This document shows, one piece after another, positions 13,962 through 23,000 of a stretch of 29,557 nt of DNA. The DNA comes from a virus: IMG/VR virus record IMGVR_UViG_3300020469_000174, positions 1 to 29,557 of that record. One strand, written 5' to 3'. The position numbers were made by a program, and so were the translations under genes. Numbering within the stretch: position 1 is the stretch's first letter; every line of letters begins with the position of its first letter. The notes below the pieces were generated by a model. The model was not told where the DNA came from, searched no databases, and saw only the letters and a list, made by a program, of their open reading frames with translations.

Positions 13962-14426
13962 ATGAAAAAACCTAGTTTAGAAACAACGGATGATCAAAAA
14001 AGAGAAGAGCGTGTGGCAGGATTTCTGGAAGGGAAGTGGGGTGTAGCCTGCCATAAGCTCCCTGTCTCATATGGGTTAGACTATTGGATTGAATCTAAAG
14101 AGACTTGTTTTTGGTGTGAAGTTAAATGTAGAAGTTTCAGTATAGATAAATACGATACTCTCATTCTTTCTTCAACAAAACTTATAAAAGGTTCTACTTA
14201 TGCTCTAGCTACTGGTGTACCTTTTATAGCTGTTTTTGCAATGACTGACGGTGTTTATTATCATGAATGGGATCCTGATCATACATATGACATAAGAATG
14301 AATGTATCGCCAAACCCTACTTATGAAGACGACAATGAGCCATATGCTCACATTCCAAAAGATATGATAAAATGTTTATCAGACCAACCATTAGGAATGG
14401 ATAGGAGCGAAATAGGATTATGTTAG
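13962..14426 (+). CDS. PD-(D/E)XK endonuclease, resolvase-like
   Basis: The 154-aa product has GLDYWIE (D40) followed by CFWCEVKCR (E53, K55), the PD-(D/E)XK core of Holliday-junction-resolvase or VRR-like nucleases. It may cut branched replication intermediates before packaging. It follows the replication protein by two bases and overlaps the holin start by seven. The specific subfamily cannot be fixed by eye; several Cys near the active site are unusual but seen only here. Confidence 0.7.
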   Translation: MKKPSLETTDDQKREERVAGFLEGKWGVACHKLPVSYGLDYWIESKETCFWCEVKCRSFSIDKYDTLILSSTKLIKGSTYALATGVPFIAVFAMTDGVYYHEWDPDHTYDIRMNVSPNPTYEDDNEPYAHIPKDMIKCLSDQPLGMDRSEIGLC

Positions 14427-14896
14427 ATAAATTAAAAGTATTAGTAGGGGCAGTAGCACCTACAATTGGAACAGCATTAGGTGGGCCAATGGGTAATGCA
14501 GCTATGAGTATGTTAGCTGATAAATTAGGTGTGCCTAATAATAAATCTGCTGTAGAAAAAGCAGTAAATCAAGCAACACCAGAACAATTAGCTGAAATTA
14601 AAAAAGCTGAATTATCTTTTGAAAAACAAATGAAAGAGCTTGAGGTTGATGTGTTCAAATTAGAAACCCAAGACACACAAGATGCCAGAAAGACTTTTTC
14701 TAAGGATTGGACTTCCAAACTTTTAGGCTTGTTAGTTATTGGTGGCTTTATGGGTTATATCTTTTTAGTAACCATACAACCGCCAGAACAAAACTCTGAA
14801 GCTTTAATAAACCTAGTGTTAGGTTATTTGGGTGGTTTAGCTTCAGCCGTAATATCTTTTTACTTTGGTGCTTCAAATAAAGATAATGACAAGTAG
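14420..14896 (+). CDS. Three-TM holin (GTA-type holin family)
   Basis: The 158-aa protein has an N-terminal Gly/Ala-rich hydrophobic helix (LVGAVAPTIGTALGGPMG), a charged middle rich in Lys/Glu, then KLLGLLVIGGFMGYIFLVTI and LVLGYLGGLASAVISFYFGA, and a charged tail. This layout matches the three-TM holin family of phages and gene transfer agents. It would permeabilise the inner membrane to time lysis. No endolysin is found next to it. AGGA precedes the ATG inside the nuclease gene. Confidence 0.75.
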   Translation: MLDKLKVLVGAVAPTIGTALGGPMGNAAMSMLADKLGVPNNKSAVEKAVNQATPEQLAEIKKAELSFEKQMKELEVDVFKLETQDTQDARKTFSKDWTSKLLGLLVIGGFMGYIFLVTIQPPEQNSEALINLVLGYLGGLASAVISFYFGASNKDNDK

Positions 14897-14962
14897 CCTG
14901 TTGACTAGCGTAAAGCTCATCGGTTTCCATACAAAACCAGGGGAACAGCAGGCTACTTTTTT
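14891..14962 (+). terminator. Terminator-like long hairpin between the two holin genes
   Basis: AAGTAGCCTG (14891-14900) pairs perfectly with CAGGCTACTT (14949-14958); three more pairs extend it, and a small GGTTT/AAACC hairpin (14922-14938) lies within. A run of T follows (14957-14962). The holin stop codon is inside the 5' arm and the next ATG is at 14966. It may attenuate entry into the curli-like genes. Confidence 0.6.
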
Positions 14963-14965
14963 CTT

Positions 14966-15316
14966 ATGCAAGAAATAGTAACTATAATTCAACAAGTAGG
15001 CTTTCCTATTGCAGCTGCAGCAGGACTGGGTTGGTTCATCTACAAACTTATTATGAGAATAGTAGATGGTATGGAAAACAAACTAGATGTTGTAGATGAA
15101 AAGGTCGCAGAACAAATAAGTGCCATGGAACAAAGGCTTGGCACTAAACTTGACTCACAACACGGTATTTTAGTAGCCTTAATAGATAGAATAAGAAGTT
15201 TAGATAATGAGATCATTAGACAAGACACTATGATAAAAACCATGTTAGGTGTACCGCAACTAATAGATAGTAACAAAATAGCTAAGGCAGATAGAGATGA
15301 CCAAAGAAAAGATTGA
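14966..15316 (+). CDS. Second holin-like protein, one TM plus coiled coil (BhlA/UviB-like layout)
   Basis: The 116-aa product has one TM helix near the N-terminus (VGFPIAAAAGLGWFIYKLI, about residues 11-29), then a long heptad-like helix (NKLDVVDEKVAEQISAMEQRL and beyond). This layout matches BhlA/UviB-type holin-like proteins, which may assist or regulate lysis. There is no Shine-Dalgarno, and the ATG follows the T-run of a hairpin by three bases. It overlaps csgF by 20 bp, linking lysis to the curli-like module. Confidence 0.6.
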   Translation: MQEIVTIIQQVGFPIAAAAGLGWFIYKLIMRIVDGMENKLDVVDEKVAEQISAMEQRLGTKLDSQHGILVALIDRIRSLDNEIIRQDTMIKTMLGVPQLIDSNKIAKADRDDQRKD

Positions 15317-15785
15317 CGATTACTACAGAGACAAATACAAGAGGATGGGTTGTGCAATATATTTGATCCCCATCTTAGCGCTTCCTATCCTCGCTGATGA
15401 AATAAAATTTAAATTTAAATCACCATCATTTAGTGGAGAGGGAACCTCTGCACATTATTTAACAATAGATCAACAAGAGTTTACAAGAAAAGAGGCTTTA
15501 GAAGCTGAAATCAAAGCCTTGCAAGATGAGCTTGAAAGAGATGCTGACAACACAACTCTTGCTAGGTTCCTAAGAAACTTTGAATCTAGAGTTTATGCAC
15601 AACTATCCAGGCAATTAGTTGATCAATTATTTGGAGAAAATCCAGCTGAAGAAGGTTCTTTCACCTTGTTCGATAATCTCATAACTTGGACGACAGACGG
15701 TATAAATATTACAATGACTATATTTAATGAAACAACTGGCGAAACAACTACTATCACTATCCCTATTGGCGACTTTGGTTTCTAG
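15297..15785 (+). CDS. csgF: CsgF-like curli assembly factor
   Basis: The 162-aa protein has an N-terminal signal peptide with an unusually long polar n-region (16 residues) and hydrophobic core ending PILA, cleaved before DEIKF (about residue 34). The mature N-terminus FKFKSPSFSG matches E. coli CsgF FQFRNPNFGG, the segment that inserts into the CsgG pore. The C-terminus (ITWTTDGINITMTIFNETTGETTTITI) matches the CsgF pattern D-G...L-T-I-x-D-x-x-T-G-x-T-T-T-I. The middle has an extra charged helix (KEALEAEIKALQDELERD). It would sit in the pore mouth and anchor the fibre. The start has only a weak ribosome site inside the upstream gene. Confidence 0.85.
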   Translation: MTKEKIDDYYRDKYKRMGCAIYLIPILALPILADEIKFKFKSPSFSGEGTSAHYLTIDQQEFTRKEALEAEIKALQDELERDADNTTLARFLRNFESRVYAQLSRQLVDQLFGENPAEEGSFTLFDNLITWTTDGINITMTIFNETTGETTTITIPIGDFGF

Positions 15786-16578
15786 TTGTGCAACACATCT
15801 AGAATATATTTCACCCTGTGTTACTAATCCTGACGAAGATTACAAAGATGTAGTTACAATTATTGGCAAGGCTCAATGTTTTTCCAAAGAAGCTTTCATT
15901 AACGAACCTATTACTGATGCAATTAAGAGTCTACCACTACCTTCTCAAAGACCTATAGTAGCAGTATATAGCTTCCCAGATGCGACAGGTCAACGTAAAT
16001 CTATCGATGGCTATGCTAGTTTCAGCTCTGCTTTATCACAAGCACCTGAAGCATATGTAATAAGGGCCCTCAAACAATCTAGATTTTTCAGAGTAGTTGA
16101 AAGGGTGGGGATTGATGCAATCACAAAAGAAAGACAAATAATAAGATCCACTAGAGAAAAGTTTGATGAAGATGATCAACAAATGCCGTTGCTTTTTGCA
16201 GGGATTATAATTACTGGTGTTGTAGCTGATTATAACTCTAACTTACTGACAGGGGGTGTAGGTGCAAGATACCTGGGTATAGGCAATAGTAAACAATATC
16301 GTGAAGATACTGTGGTCGTATCTATGCGTGTTGTTTCAGTATCTACTGGTGAAATATTACTAGAAAATTTAATAACAAAAACTATTCTTTCGGTTGGTTT
16401 ATCTAATGATTTTTTTAGATATATAGCCGAAGGGACCAAGTTGGTAGAGTTTGAAACAGGTAATGCTATGAACGAAAGTAAATCAATAGCGTTGCAAGCA
16501 GCCATAGAAACTGGTATCGTTGATATTATACGCCAAGGTGAGAGTAAAGATTATTGGCGTTATATGGAGAGCAAATGA
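15727..16578 (+). CDS. csgG: CsgG-like outer-membrane curli secretion lipoprotein
   Basis: The 283-aa protein starts with a lipoprotein signal (LATLVSSC, Cys21), so it would be lipidated and sent to the outer membrane. TGGVGARYLGIGNSKQY and VVSMRVVSVSTGEIL match E. coli CsgG closely (GGVGARYFGIG..., RVVNVSTGEIL). A second conserved block, VAVYSFPDATGQ, precedes the constriction loop, where F99 matches Phe56 but Asn55 and Tyr51 are replaced. The stretch between Cys21 and RPIVAVY is longer than in E. coli, with two further Cys. The first 59 bp overlap the end of csgF in another frame. CsgG forms a nonameric pore. Confidence 0.92.
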   Translation: MKQLAKQLLSLSLLATLVSSCATHLEYISPCVTNPDEDYKDVVTIIGKAQCFSKEAFINEPITDAIKSLPLPSQRPIVAVYSFPDATGQRKSIDGYASFSSALSQAPEAYVIRALKQSRFFRVVERVGIDAITKERQIIRSTREKFDEDDQQMPLLFAGIIITGVVADYNSNLLTGGVGARYLGIGNSKQYREDTVVVSMRVVSVSTGEILLENLITKTILSVGLSNDFFRYIAEGTKLVEFETGNAMNESKSIALQAAIETGIVDIIRQGESKDYWRYMESK

Positions 16579-17291
16579 GAATTTTATTATTTTTTCTTTC
16601 GTTGTCTCTATTTTCAGATAACGAAATTTTTATTGACCAAACAGGTTCAAACGCATTAATTAAACTAGAACAACTAGGTAGTACTAACCTTATTGGCGGC
16701 ACAAGTTCTGTTGCAGGAACCGTAACCGCTTTAGATCTTGACGGTACAAACATGACTCTTACTATCAATCAAATTGGTAGTAGCAACCTATTCAAATCTG
16801 ATGCATTCGACTCAGATTACGTTACTGGATTATTTGACTTTCAAGGTGACAGCAATGAAATGGACATTTTAGTAAACAGTAGTGGTGCTTATACAGCTGA
16901 CTATGCAGATTTCAATATTCAAGTAACAGGTGGTAGCAATACATTTGATGTAGAAGTAGCCGAAACCTCTAACGCTGATTACTTGGATCTAGACTGGATT
17001 ATCGACGGTGATAATAATGATTTTAGTTTTGATATAGATTATGAAAATGCAGTTAACAATATTGATGTCTTTGGTGATAGCAACACTCTTACTTTTACTG
17101 GTAGTGGTTATGCTGGCACAACCTCAAGCGATTCAGCCTACTTTTATTTAGACTTAGACGGCTCAAGCAATACATTTACAATTACACAAGCTTCGACTCT
17201 TGCTCGTGATTACCTTAAAATTACATCTAATGGTTCGAATAGTGTATTCTGTATTGTTCAAAATGACGGTTCTAGCACAACTACATGCTGA
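16575..17291 (+). CDS. Curlin-like secreted amyloid-repeat protein
   Basis: The ATG at 16575 is ATGA-coupled to csgG with GGAG upstream (238 aa). A short signal-like segment (MRILLFFLSLSLFS) is followed by about ten repeats. Early ones are near-canonical curlin (IFIDQTGSNALI, LEQLGSTNLI, TINQIGSSNLF); later ones keep only the G-x-x-N turn (FGDSNTLTF, DGSSNTFTI). The turn Asn residues are at about 26, 38, 59, 71, 94, 122, 148, 170, 199 and 222. The protein is acidic and Asp/Ser/Thr-rich, and ends with two Cys (VFCIVQN, TTTC). It should be the CsgG/F substrate; whether it is a fibre subunit or a nucleator is open. The longer start at 16554 is TTG and less likely. Confidence 0.75.
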   Translation: MRILLFFLSLSLFSDNEIFIDQTGSNALIKLEQLGSTNLIGGTSSVAGTVTALDLDGTNMTLTINQIGSSNLFKSDAFDSDYVTGLFDFQGDSNEMDILVNSSGAYTADYADFNIQVTGGSNTFDVEVAETSNADYLDLDWIIDGDNNDFSFDIDYENAVNNIDVFGDSNTLTFTGSGYAGTTSSDSAYFYLDLDGSSNTFTITQASTLARDYLKITSNGSNSVFCIVQNDGSSTTTC

Positions 17292-18315
17292 ACCAATAGG
17301 AGACATTACAGAACTTAAAGGTTATGGGCAGGTCCTAAGAGGCGAGCCTTATCCAGCTGTCTTAGACTTCAACATAAATTCATATGATGACGTGCAGACT
17401 AGAGCAGGTCGTATAGGTATAACCTTCTTAGATAACTCAACCGTAAGGCTTACTGAGCATTCTTCGTTAATTATTGATGAGTATATTTATGATCCAAATC
17501 CAAACAACAGCAAAATGGCTTTGCAATTTGCTAGCGGCACCATCAGATTTGTATCAGGTAATCTTAATAAAAATAGAATATCACTTAAAACTCCTACAGC
17601 TGATATAGGCGTCAGGGGAACAGATTTTACAGTAACCGTAGATGAGACAGGCAGGTCTTTGATTATTCTCTTACCTAATGAATTTGGAGATGCTAGTGGT
17701 GAGATAGTGGTATCTACTGCTATGGGCCAAGTAGTTTTGAATAAACCGTATCAAGCTACTACTACAAGTGTTTATGAAAGCACACCTACTAAACCAGTAA
17801 AATTAGCAATAGATTTAAACTTTATAGATAACATGCTCATAATATCACCACCAAAAGAAGAGCTTAGTCTAGAAGAAGAAAGCGTCATAAAAGCTGCAGA
17901 TTTTTTAGAGTTTAACGATTTAGATGTAGATTTCTTGGAAGAAGATCTATTAGAGGAAGATCCAGATTTTGATTTTACAGAATTAGATATAGATTATTTG
18001 AATGTAAATTTTTTAGAGGACCTTTTGGATATTTTAGATTTGTTAGACGAAGAAGAAGAAACAGAATTATTAGGACAAGTTTCTGGTGTTGATATACAAG
18101 GAACTACAATAGGGCAAGATCTTGAAACGAACATCACTACTATAGTAGATGGTGACGCACTAAGATTAATGCGTAAAGTTACTCAAAATGCAGAGTTAAC
18201 TTTAAACTCAGATCAATCATATACCGTAATATTTATACAAGACGGTGTTTCGAGGACAGTAAAAATAAATGGTGGCTCAACTTCTAACATAACAATAATA
18301 CAGGGGTCAGGATGA
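17230..18315 (+). CDS. Exported FecR-domain protein with acidic C-terminal region
   Basis: The ATG at 17230 gives a 361-aa protein with a signal peptide ending AQLHA (cleavage near residue 20); this part overlaps the curlin-like gene by 62 bp in another frame. Residues about 55-135 form a FecR domain: GITFLDNSTVRLTEHSSLIID, LQFASGTIRFVSG, and TPTADIGVRGTDFTV. The C-terminal half has an Asp/Glu/Leu repeat-like region (DFLEFNDLDVDFLEEDLLEE, then NFLEDLLDILDLLDEEEE), and ends with a Thr/Ser/Gly beta-like tail. No anti-sigma cytoplasmic domain or TM follows, so it is a periplasmic or surface member and not a classical FecR regulator. It is coupled by ATGA to the cyclase and may pass signals to its CHASE2 domain. 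Confidence 0.75.
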   Translation: MVRIVYSVLFKMTVLAQLHAEPIGDITELKGYGQVLRGEPYPAVLDFNINSYDDVQTRAGRIGITFLDNSTVRLTEHSSLIIDEYIYDPNPNNSKMALQFASGTIRFVSGNLNKNRISLKTPTADIGVRGTDFTVTVDETGRSLIILLPNEFGDASGEIVVSTAMGQVVLNKPYQATTTSVYESTPTKPVKLAIDLNFIDNMLIISPPKEELSLEEESVIKAADFLEFNDLDVDFLEEDLLEEDPDFDFTELDIDYLNVNFLEDLLDILDLLDEEEETELLGQVSGVDIQGTTIGQDLETNITTIVDGDALRLMRKVTQNAELTLNSDQSYTVIFIQDGVSRTVKINGGSTSNITIIQGSG

Positions 18316-20057
18316 GGTTAAAGTTATTTTTTGTATTGCTTACAATATTATTAATACCTTTAATAACACAATCTGTTCCAACTGAAATATTAAAGCTTAA
18401 AACATTTGATGTTTTAGTTCAGAAACATAACCCATCTGAATACTTTACTATAATTAATATTGATGAATTAGATATAAGTAGGGAAGGTGGTTGGCCCTTA
18501 CCAAGATCTAGAATTGCTGAGATAACAGAAGAAATATTCGCTAATGGTGCCATAGGAGTTGGTTGGGTGTTATCATTTATAGATAAAGACAGGTTTGAGA
18601 TAGGTGGTGACAAATACCTATTAGAAAAGTTAAGTTCATATCCCACGATTGTTGCCACCTTCTCATTTGACAACCAAATATATCCATCACCAGAAGGAAC
18701 CGTTGTTTTAGGAGCAGACGCTCCAGGTATACTGCTTGAAGGACACCTACCAAACATACCAGGCATGTCAGAAGCAACACTAGAAGGTATTGTTAGTGCA
18801 CCAATAGATGTAGATGGTTTGGTTAGAAGAGTACCACTCATGTATAGGATACCTGACGGTTGGGTGCCAAGTTTCGGTACACAAGTATATAAAAGTCTAA
18901 CTGGCTCAGATACTTACATAATCAAAACTAATCAATACGGTTTAGAAGAAATAAGAGTCAAAGGAATTCCACCTGTACCTGTGGACAGTTTAGGACGAAA
19001 GTGGATAAGTTGGGTAGATACACCAACAACCTCTTTGACTGATATGGATGTAGCTAATAAATTTGTTTTTATTGGGACGACAGGTAAAGGCATAATGCCA
19101 GTTGTTTCTACTCCGTCAGGTTTGTTAGCTCCTCATGAAATTCAAGCAGCATTATCTGAGTCAATTTTGTTGCCAAACTCACCTTATATCCCAGATTGGC
19201 ATTTAGCGGTAGAAATCTTAATTTTAGGATTTTTTTGCTTTTTTATTTGGCTTGTAACGCAATCTTTAGGAGTTACAGGTGGTTTGATAAGCTTTTTATT
19301 ACTATTTTCTTCTGTCGGCTTCTCAGGAGCCTACATCATCAGAAGCGGTATTTTACTGGATTTTTCCTATAGTTTGGTTGCTGGATTTATTACTGGGGCC
19401 GTATCTTTCTATTTAAACTTTGAAAAACAATATAAATTACGACAACAAATTAAAAAACAGTTTGAGCACTACTTAGATCCTGCTCAAGTAAAAAGACTAC
19501 AAGACAATCCTGAACTACTAAAGTTAGGTGGAGAAAAAAGATACTGTACATATTTATTTACAGATGTCAGAGGATTTACAAGCATGTCTGAAAAACTAGA
19601 TCCACAAGAAGTTACTGAGATCATGAACAAAGCTTTGACTATCCAAGCTAATGCAGTTCAACGTAACGGAGGTATGGTTGATAAATATATTGGAGATGCG
19701 ATGATGGCGATCTTTAACGCACCTTTAGATCAAAATAATCATGAAGACGCAGCTATACAAACAGCTGTTCAGATAAGAGACGAAATAAAAGCAGCAGAGT
19801 TAGGTATTGCAATTGGTATAGGTTTAAATTCAGGGCCAGCTGTTGTAGGTAATATGGGGTCAGATTCACGCTTTGACTATACGGCTATAGGTTCAGATGT
19901 CAACTTGGGTGCTAGATGTGAAAGCAGTTGTAAGGCCGTAGGTGAAGATATAGTAATCGGCAAGAATACAGCTCAAGCTGCAAGCCATAAATTAAGAAAG
20001 TTAAAACCGATTGAAATGAAGGGTATAGCTAAACCTGTTGAGATTTATACTGTTTAA
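18312..20057 (+). CDS. CHASE2-domain class III adenylate cyclase
   Basis: The 581-aa membrane protein has an N-terminal TM helix (about 3-19), an extracytoplasmic CHASE2 domain (about 25-290, with GVGWVLSFID and a DVDGLVRRVPL segment), three TM helices (about 297-365) and a class III cyclase domain (about 405-581). Metal-binding D418 (LFTDVRGF) and D462 (GDAMMAIF), adenine-specifying K458 and T524 (DYTAIG), and transition-state N531 and R535 (NLGARCE) are all present, so it should be active and make cAMP. It is coupled to the FecR gene and ends the operon. Its stop shares bases with that of the convergent gene at 20054. Confidence 0.88.
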   Translation: MRLKLFFVLLTILLIPLITQSVPTEILKLKTFDVLVQKHNPSEYFTIINIDELDISREGGWPLPRSRIAEITEEIFANGAIGVGWVLSFIDKDRFEIGGDKYLLEKLSSYPTIVATFSFDNQIYPSPEGTVVLGADAPGILLEGHLPNIPGMSEATLEGIVSAPIDVDGLVRRVPLMYRIPDGWVPSFGTQVYKSLTGSDTYIIKTNQYGLEEIRVKGIPPVPVDSLGRKWISWVDTPTTSLTDMDVANKFVFIGTTGKGIMPVVSTPSGLLAPHEIQAALSESILLPNSPYIPDWHLAVEILILGFFCFFIWLVTQSLGVTGGLISFLLLFSSVGFSGAYIIRSGILLDFSYSLVAGFITGAVSFYLNFEKQYKLRQQIKKQFEHYLDPAQVKRLQDNPELLKLGGEKRYCTYLFTDVRGFTSMSEKLDPQEVTEIMNKALTIQANAVQRNGGMVDKYIGDAMMAIFNAPLDQNNHEDAAIQTAVQIRDEIKAAELGIAIGIGLNSGPAVVGNMGSDSRFDYTAIGSDVNLGARCESSCKAVGEDIVIGKNTAQAASHKLRKLKPIEMKGIAKPVEIYTV

Positions 20058-23000
20058 ATAGGATCGAAACCTAAGCGTTGTTCTCTTTCAATTACTGATC
20101 CTGGATTAGATGCAGGCCTATTATAGCTAGATAGATCTGGTAAAGGTATATCAACACTTTGGACAGCTCTTGTTCCCATATCTCTAAACTGTTGTGCTTC
20201 TTGGGTATTGGCTAAGTCACCAACTTCACGCCTAACTGTTTCATCTAATTTTTCGACACCACTCGCAACTTCTCTCGTTAGGTATTGTTTGACGGCTCTG
20301 TCAAAATAATCAAAAACAAGTTGAACAGAGTTTTTATCTGTAGATGCCATCATTCTCACTAATTTAGGATTTGATAATGCGCCTCTCATAATAATTATAC
20401 CAGCAGCTAAAGGTATAGCCGCTACATTTAAAAACCCTACAGCAAGAGAAGCAGCTATAAGACCACCAGCCGCAGCGCCTCTACCAGCCTCACCTTTAGT
20501 AAGAACATCTATAGAGTTAGCTAAATACCTTAAACTGTCTTTAGTTTCTTTACCGAACATAGCTTCTAAGGTTTCATCACCATATGAATCTAAAGCGCTA
20601 GCTAAAGCTTGAGGTTTAAAAATATCGGTCACTTCGCCTTTTGTGCCAGGTTTAATTGTAGTCCTGAGAAGTTTATCCATACCAGCATTTTGTATTTCTA
20701 GAAAAGCATCATCCCCAATTACATTTCGTACCTTAGCGATATTATCGGCTCCTCGTGGTGTAAATATCTTACTTACAACCTCTTCAGCTGTAGCATCAGG
20801 TAATCGTTCTGATATAAATTTATTAGCTTCGAATAATTCATTATCAAGTTGTGCACTAGCTTTACCTTTGAGTGCTTCCATGAATTCAGTACCTGCTCTA
20901 CCAACGTTAGCGTATCCCTGTCTATTAACACTTATATTAGAAAGTAAATCAAAAACTTCATCTGATTTTATATTTGGTTTTAGTTTTATTAAATCGTCAG
21001 AAAGGTTTTGAATTTCTTGTGCAACACCAGGAGCGTTGAATAATTCTTCTAGTTTGCGTGAGTCTTTTCTTTGGAATTCTTTCATGAATCTACCAAATTT
21101 TACAAAATCTACAGTATTAGTTGTGGTGTCTAATGATGCGTCTAAAGTTTCTTTAAAAAACTGTTGTTGCATGATAGTTCTTACATCATCTAAAGTATTA
21201 CTAGTTATACCTATTTTATTGCTGTAATCATCATATTGTTTTAAATTTTTGAAAACGTCTCTTAAATCGGTATAATCGCCTTTAAGAAAAATACTGTTAT
21301 AGATTGCATCAGCTTCAGTAGAACCATACTTTGCTTGTTCAGCAATTCTTTTAATATTAATTTTATCGAAAGATGCGCTGGCTTCAGCATATTCTCTGTT
21401 TATTCTGGCAAATTCTTCTGTATATTTTACAATATTTTGTTTGGCCCTTTGACCTAAAGCTGGTATTCTTTTCATGTTAGAATCATAAGTAACACCATAA
21501 CTTTCTATATTACCCAAATCCTCCATAAAACCACCATTTCTGTTTATGCCTAAAACATCATCATCCATTAGACGTCCTAAGTTTCCATCTGGTTTTATAA
21601 TACGTTGATCAAAACCTAACTCATTAGCCATTTTTTCGTACATTTTATTCATTTGACCCCTATTGAGAGTTGTATATTTGTACTTTCTTAAATCTTTGAC
21701 TGCGTCAATAATTTCTACCATATTCAGTTGTTTTGGATCGTTTACCATTTTTTCTAATTTTTCTACAGCTTCTTCAAATGGTTTCAAAGCTGATGAAGGA
21801 AGATCGCCTGGTTGATCTATACCTTTAATTATTTTTACATTATAATCCTTGAGTTCATCCTTAATGTTTTGAACTCTTTTTCCAAGAATGGTTGCAATCT
21901 TTTTTTGAACTGCGCTTGCTTGTGTATCAGATGTTTGAGCTACTGCTTCTTTAAAATTCTTATTTAAATTTTTATATTGATCACCAAAAGTATTATCTAT
22001 AGCTCGTCGAGCACGATTCATGTTATTAATTAATAATGTGCCAAATTCTTTTTGTCCAATAGATTCACCATACAAACCAAGCCCTGTTATGTCTTCAGTC
22101 ATATCTTTTAAAGCTTGCTCTAGTTTAGCGTTGTTATTATTGACTAAAGCACTTAATTCAGCTTTTTTATTTGCAATTGAACGGTCAATACCTATTTTAG
22201 TTTCACCCTGTATACCGCCCTGCAATTTTGCTTTGTAATAATCTGAGGCTACATTTTTTTGTTTGTTGAGATCACCAACAAGCCTGCTGACCTGCATGTT
22301 TATATTTTCTATATTACCTCTGGTTCTGGTGTTGCCAAGAATAGATTCCATAATTTGTTGGAACCTGCCAGGCAAAGATCTACCAAGCCCAGCTTGACTG
22401 ACAACATAAGCTACAGGGTTTAACCTTATAGCACCAGGTTGATAGCCGCCTTTATCATAATCGTATTTTTTAACAGCGGCTTCTATTTCTTTAAGTGTTG
22501 CTGGTCTACCATTTTTTTTAGTTTTCGGATTAAATAAACTAGCATCTAACTTTTGTAAGTCTTGTAAATCACGACCAGCGGCTGCTTCTCTTTGTAGTCT
22601 GTTAGTTGCTTTAGGTGCGGACTTACCTAAGGTGTTGGCAAATAAAATACCAATACCTTCACCTATACCTTGTCCTGCTGCACCAAGCAAAGCTTCACCA
22701 GTAAGTTCCCCTCCAATCTCATATAAACTTTGTTTTTGATAACCTTGTAAATAATCCACGCTTTCTTCTACGGCTTTACCACCAGCAGAACCTATTGCTG
22801 CAGTAATAACATTCGCCGCTCTAGTTGAACCTTTGTCACCAAATAATCCTGCAAGACTTTTAGCACCCTTGTAAAGTCTAGTTTGTGGGGCCATAGCAAC
22901 AAGAGAGCCTATAATAGGACCTGATATACCTGCAAAGTCAGCTAAGTCAGCCATACCTTCAAAACTATTAGAATCTATAATAGTATTTATTGGTAATCTG

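What the first reader, a model, noticed from the sequence alone, without database searches (positions are those of the whole stretch)
15297..17291. Phage-carried curli-like export set: CsgF, CsgG and a curlin-repeat substrate
CsgG is recognised by GGVGARYLGIG and VVSVSTGEIL plus a lipobox; CsgF by its FKFKSPSFSG pore-binding N-terminus and C-terminal domain. The next gene encodes a secreted protein with about ten curlin-like turns. Encoding pore, adaptor and an apparent substrate together in a phage is unusual. CsgE, CsgC and CsgD are missing, so targeting and control must differ or rely on the host.
Basis: partly seen in the sequence, partly recalled or inferred. Interest (0 to 1): 0.88.

Follow-up and report, generated by a model that had tools for sequence, protein, structure and literature searches.

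The report
Curli secretion genes carried by phage
A marine phage carries a compact six-gene set for a curli-type outer-membrane pore, a secreted repeat protein and a cAMP-signalling enzyme; such sets were already reported in other marine phages, but this one lies in an apparently undescribed phage lineage and, in that lineage, usually sits behind a conserved folded RNA that matches no known RNA family.

Summary
CsgF, CsgG and a curlin-repeat protein are at 15297-17291, in a real phage. At least 15 other contigs keep the same junctions on both sides, so it is no chimera. The set is larger than reported: TM/coiled-coil gene - csgF - csgG - curlin - FecR-domain protein - CHASE2 adenylate cyclase (14966-20057), with overlapping genes, all under purifying selection. 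CsgE and CsgC are absent.

The main claim is not new. Wittmers et al. 2022 (PMC9599517) describe this module in HTVC023P-type podophages and pelagimyophages, and isolates HTVC008M and Melnitz carry it.

What I found beyond that paper: (1) the module in another phage lineage, with sister phages lacking it at the same site; (2) the first gene, at the position the paper calls 'histidine kinase', has no kinase domain and no invariant histidine; (3) one bacterial chromosome (Hyphomonas sp. TMED17) has the collinear five-gene set without that gene; (4) a conserved, covarying three-way-junction RNA (14891-14968) joins the holin-like gene to the module, with no Rfam match.

Best reading: a phage type VIII secretion set that exports a beta-solenoid surface protein during infection, probably coupled to cAMP signalling. 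The purpose remains untested.

The parts
14420..14896 (+). holin-like membrane protein (two predicted C-terminal TM segments); upstream neighbour, absent with the module from empty-site sister phages
   Evidence: phrog_1544 E=7e-26, function unknown; TM segments; absent in L086, L087, L089, L090, L096
14891..14968 (+). conserved three-way-junction RNA; 5' arm of P1 holds the stop codon of the holin-like gene, 3' arm ends 6-9 nt before the next ATG
   Evidence: MFE z -3.4; 10 pairs with two-sided changes, covariation score 0.346 against 0.128 in shuffles; one copy per record, only at this junction; no credible Rfam match
14966..15316 (+). small TM + coiled-coil protein, first gene of the module; sits where Wittmers et al. 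place a 'histidine kinase'
   Evidence: present upstream of csgF in nearly all viral loci; dN/dS about 0.03; no kinase domain; no invariant His
15297..15785 (+). CsgF (probable start at 15345)
   Evidence: PF10614 E=2.3e-17
15727..16578 (+). CsgG outer-membrane lipoprotein pore
   Evidence: PF03783 E=1.5e-43; PDB 3x2r, 4uv3, 6l7a matches
16575..17291 (+). secreted curlin-repeat protein, predicted beta-solenoid
   Evidence: PF07012 E=8e-5; AF2 model all-beta; BFVD 'Curlin associated' E=7.6e-8, TM 0.73-0.78
17230..18315 (+). exported FecR-domain protein with putative signal peptide, overlapping the end of the curlin gene; no FecR-type cytoplasmic domain or TM
   Evidence: PF04773 E=4e-13; weak resemblance to Leptospira surface proteins LipL45 and Lsa33; no TM segment
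18312..20057 (+). CHASE2-domain class III adenylate cyclase
   Evidence: PF05226 E=1e-30, PF00211 E=4e-17; cyclase structures E=1e-32, catalytic motifs present in the aligned sequence

Best explanation
This is a phage-encoded type VIII (curli-type) secretion module. Shown from sequence: an intact, conserved, co-oriented and overlapping gene set for a CsgG pore lipoprotein, its CsgF partner, an exported curlin-repeat protein, an exported FecR-domain protein and a membrane adenylate cyclase with an extracytoplasmic CHASE2 sensor. Inferred: during infection CsgG and CsgF form an outer-membrane channel that passes the curlin-repeat protein to the cell surface, where it makes a beta-solenoid fibre or coat; the FecR-domain protein reports periplasmic state to CHASE2 and so sets cAMP in the infected cell. 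The most likely benefit is a changed host surface (exclusion of competing phages, or aggregation), not uptake or lysis. The upstream membrane protein and, in this lineage, the folded RNA probably tune expression of the set relative to the lysis-type gene before it.
For: Family matches and PDB matches. Same order in about 40 viral contigs and in isolates HTVC008M and Melnitz. dN/dS 0.03-0.17 for all six genes. Both junctions repeated in at least 15 contigs of this lineage, and empty sites in sister phages. Beta-solenoid prediction. Published description with metatranscript evidence of expression (PMC9599517). Precedent only: periplasmic FecR-domain protein SMc02177 is a cAMP/Clr target in Sinorhizobium, where adenylate cyclases including CHASE2-bearing CyaD1 supply cAMP (PMC5498481).
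Against: No CsgE gate. The repeat protein is a weak curlin match and mostly degenerate, so it may not polymerise. Melnitz cultures showed no clumping (PMC9004378). Host, expression and secretion in this phage are untested.
Confidence: 0.72

Rival explanations
1. The CsgG-CsgF pore has been repurposed for lysis timing or membrane depolarisation, with the upstream membrane/coiled-coil protein as a holin-like partner.
For: Proposed for Melnitz (PMC9004378). The module follows a holin-like gene and starts with a small TM/coiled-coil protein with weak holin-profile hits.
Against: Does not explain the conserved curlin, FecR and cyclase genes, all under purifying selection. The pore is in the outer membrane, and holin identity is not confirmed.
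Confidence: 0.13
2. The open CsgG-CsgF channel without CsgE serves uptake of nutrients or cofactors by the infected cell.
For: CsgE absent. Suggested in PMC9599517 and PMC7029224.
Against: Leaves the curlin-repeat protein and CsgF unexplained; CsgF is not needed for a bare channel.
Confidence: 0.1
3. Chimeric assembly of phage and bacterial DNA at 14900-20060.
For: None found; the genes are cell-type genes.
Against: Same junctions on both sides in at least 15 contigs from different samples. Overlapping gene ends and even GC. Phage-type CsgG forms a supported clade apart from ordinary bacterial CsgG.
Confidence: 0.01

Closest known systems
Pelagiphage T8SS module (Wittmers et al. 2022, PMC9599517; HTVC023P-type podophages and pelagimyophages)
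   Same: Same genes in the same order: small gene(s), csgF, csgG, curlin, fecR, adenylate cyclase; no CsgE, CsgC or CsgD
   Different: Window phage is not HTVC023P-type: relative HTVC027P shares only the terminase small subunit and weak small-gene hits. One curlin gene; structured RNA upstream; first gene is not a histidine kinase
Pelagibacter phage HTVC008M and Methylophilales phage Melnitz (isolates)
   Same: Module present and collinear
   Different: Large myophages; second curlin-repeat gene in Melnitz and an extra gene at that place in HTVC008M; CsgG 42-45% identical; no such RNA
Hyphomonas sp. TMED17 chromosomal curli operon (L108)
   Same: Collinear csgF-csgG-curlin-fecR-cyclase; CsgG falls in the phage clade
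   Different: On a 705-kb bacterial contig, no TM/coiled-coil gene, 504-aa curlin with many repeats; other curli operons of its family and class lack fecR and cyclase next to csgG
E. coli csgDEFG-csgBAC
   Same: CsgG pore and CsgF partner homologous
   Different: No CsgE, CsgC; FecR and cyclase added; substrate longer and degenerate

Membership tests
Type VIII secretion (curli) system | CsgG-family outer-membrane lipoprotein pore | tested here: met
   PF03783 E=1.5e-43, lipobox by inspection, PDB alignment
Type VIII secretion (curli) system | CsgF partner with exported N-terminal pore-binding segment | tested here: met
   PF10614 E=2.3e-17; signal peptide then FKFKSPSFSG by inspection; binding itself not tested
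Type VIII secretion (curli) system | Exported curlin-repeat substrate encoded alongside | tested here: met
   PF07012 E=8e-5, just over cut-off; 5 of 26 members of the alignment match at E<=0.01
Type VIII secretion (curli) system | CsgE periplasmic gate and CsgC inhibitor | tested here: not met
   No match in the window or eight related viral records; also unreported in published phage modules, and not essential for curli per PMC7029224
Curlin amyloid (CsgA-like) | Regular Q/N-laddered repeats forming an amyloid beta-solenoid | tested here: inconclusive
   Predicted beta-solenoid; only the first repeats canonical; 22-33-residue spacing; polymerisation not testable
Pelagiphage T8SS module (Wittmers 2022) | Gene order [small gene]-csgF-csgG-curlin-fecR-AC | tested here: met
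Histidine kinase (published label for the first gene) | Kinase/ATPase domain and a conserved phospho-acceptor histidine | tested here: not met
   No kinase profile in 15 members; some members contain no histidine. That the published label refers to this gene rests on its position
FecR iron anti-sigma regulator | Cytoplasmic N-terminal domain, TM segment, partner sigma factor FecI | tested here: not met
   No TM or N-terminal domain, only the FecR domain after a putative signal peptide; FecI not searched by profile
Rfam RNA families (for 14891-14968) | Score above a family's gathering threshold | tested here: not met
   Best chance hits E 4.4 and 8.9, far under threshold

The most novel reading that the evidence does not exclude
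The RNA at 14891-14968 is a new family of cis-regulatory RNA: a three-way junction with a near-invariant core that covers the stop codon of the holin-like gene and the start region of the curli module, and decides, by translational coupling or by binding a ligand or protein, when the surface-secretion set is made relative to the lysis-type gene.
Probability: 0.4. Interest if true: 0.5.

Novelty: new member of a known kind. Interest (0 to 1): 0.38.

Why it matters
The curli-in-phage idea is established but its function is not. A further phage lineage with the module, plus sister phages that lack it at the same site, gives a natural presence/absence comparison. Correcting the 'histidine kinase' and 'iron regulator' readings removes two misleading clues. 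One bacterial operon with the same five genes is a candidate source or recipient, and the upstream RNA is a concrete handle on how the module is switched on.

Tried and rejected
Chimera: rejected by repeated junctions. MAG loci L107, L109, L110, L123, L124, L130 and L161, named as Pelagibacter, Rhodobacteraceae, Flavobacteriaceae or Pirellulales, look like misbinned phage contigs, so they are not cellular sources. The Salmonella phage hit OR851715 is a 1.5-kb unverified contig and was ignored. RNA as a plain intrinsic terminator: the U-tract is not conserved in all members and the terminator scan did not list it. RNA elsewhere in viral contigs: two pattern scans gave only this lineage. Promoter scan: no excess over shuffles. 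AlphaFold2 of the TM/coiled-coil protein: pLDDT 49, helical but uninformative. Foldseek against PDB gave no match with E below 0.001 for the curlin model. The Hyphomonas operon as proven source: direction not resolved, since it falls inside the phage clade with moderate support. A literature search for the RNA found nothing.

Full report
Observation. The window is a 29,557-base viral record. CsgG aligns with solved E. coli CsgG over 213 residues. CsgF has a signal peptide if started at 15345, followed by FKFKSPSFSG. The curlin protein has seven exact GxxN corners 22-33 residues apart, a count that 0 of 2000 shuffles reach, and most of them are invariant in 25 aligned sequences. AlphaFold2 predicts an all-beta repeat (pLDDT 76.5, pTM 0.75). 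The four significant matches among viral models include three named 'Curlin associated' (E down to 7.6e-8). PDB matches are beta-helices and beta-solenoids, with the CsgA fibril among the weaker ones.

The unit is larger. Upstream and overlapping is a 116-aa TM/coiled-coil protein (14966-15316). Downstream are an exported FecR-domain protein (17230-18315, overlapping the curlin gene by 62 bases) and a CHASE2 adenylate cyclase (18312-20057). The cyclase matches solved cyclases at E=1e-32 and by inspection keeps the metal-binding aspartates, the lysine and the Asn/Arg pair. All six genes are under purifying selection, median dN/dS 0.03 to 0.17. CsgE and CsgC are absent from the window and from eight longer related viral records.

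Is it phage? A scan with CsgG gave 58 viral contigs. About 40 carry the whole module in order, and at least 15 have the window's own flanking genes on both sides, primase/holin-like upstream and the 1104-aa virion-type gene downstream. Relatives found with the primase include phages in which the same neighbours meet without the module (L086, L087, L089, L090, L096, and L094, L098, L104 with a still shorter join). The holin-like gene, the RNA, the TM/coiled-coil gene and the module are therefore gained or lost as a block. A chimera is excluded.

Known or new? The core claim is known. Zaragoza-Solas et al. 2020 (PMC7029224) reported csgF/csgG in pelagimyophages. Buchholz et al. 2022 (PMC9004378) discussed Melnitz. 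Wittmers et al. 2022 (PMC9599517) described the complete module, including curlin repeats, FecR and cyclase, in HTVC023P-type podophages and myophages, with ocean-wide occurrence and transcripts. (Author names are from my own knowledge; the identifiers are what I read.) Isolates HTVC008M and Melnitz carry it. The window phage is not HTVC023P-type: HTVC027P shares only the terminase small subunit clearly, and HTVC103P and phage DSL-LC04 only scattered genes. It is thus a further lineage, which I did not find described.

Corrections to the published picture. The 2022 paper says the module is always preceded by one or two histidine kinases. The gene or genes at exactly that place, one here and two in Melnitz and L046, are about 90-117 aa, have no kinase profile and no invariant histidine. 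I infer that the published label is wrong, but I could not compare their sequences directly. The FecR-domain protein lacks a TM segment and the cytoplasmic part of the iron regulator FecR, so an iron-regulatory role is unsupported; a periplasmic partner of CHASE2 is more plausible, with a loose precedent in Sinorhizobium.

Origin. In a scan of genome contigs, one clearly chromosomal locus has the collinear five genes: Hyphomonas sp. TMED17, on a 705-kb contig, without the TM/coiled-coil gene. Curli operons from 24 other alphaproteobacterial loci lack FecR and cyclase near csgG, and in about 300 genomes of its order the best other CsgF match is only 36% identical. In the CsgG tree all phage sequences plus TMED17 form one side of a branch (100/99), with TMED17 inside it (89/69). 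The direction of transfer is open. Several MAG-labelled hits are misbinned phage contigs.

The RNA. Between the holin-like gene and the module lies a 78-nt element, window 14891-14968, predicted as a three-way junction (MFE -27.1, z -3.4). It recurs at the same junction in more than 30 loci, one copy per record, and nowhere else in the sequences searched. Ten of 21 pairs show changes on both sides; 96% of cells pair against 84% in shuffles and 26-44% when the partners are slid. The third stem varies in length and sequence while the junction segments UUGACU and GGAACA stay nearly invariant. The 5' arm of P1 carries the stop codon of the holin-like gene, and the 3' arm ends just before the next start codon. 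Some members of the lineage lack it, and there the two genes abut or overlap. Rfam has no match. A regulatory role is inferred, not shown.

Mechanism. Shown: conserved, intact genes for an outer-membrane pore, its partner, an exported repeat protein, an exported FecR-domain protein and a membrane cyclase. Inferred: secretion of a beta-solenoid coat or fibre during infection, coupled to cAMP. Superinfection exclusion or aggregation is more likely than uptake or lysis because the substrate is conserved along with the pore. The host is not identified here.

Verdict. A correct observation of a known kind of phage module, in an apparently undescribed lineage, with a structured RNA as the most original element.

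Noticed in passing
window 14891-14968: Conserved covarying three-way-junction RNA between the holin-like gene and the curli module; no Rfam match; one copy per record, present in most but not all members of this phage lineage.
   Followed up: yes
L108 7474-13497: Chromosomal csgF-csgG-curlin-fecR-CHASE2 cyclase operon in Hyphomonas sp. TMED17, collinear with the phage module; CsgG falls inside the phage clade.
   Followed up: partly
L107, L109, L110, L123, L124, L130, L161: Phage contigs with the curli module that appear misbinned into bacterial MAGs (Pelagibacter, Rhodobacteraceae, Flavobacteriaceae, Pirellulales).
   Followed up: partly
window 14966-15316: TM/coiled-coil protein is the most conserved gene of the module (dN/dS about 0.03), with weak holin-type profile hits; function unknown.
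   Followed up: partly
window 13962-14426: Small protein next to the insertion site with a DYWIE...EVKCR pattern that by eye resembles a PD-(D/E)XK nuclease; kept in most empty-site phages.
   Followed up: no
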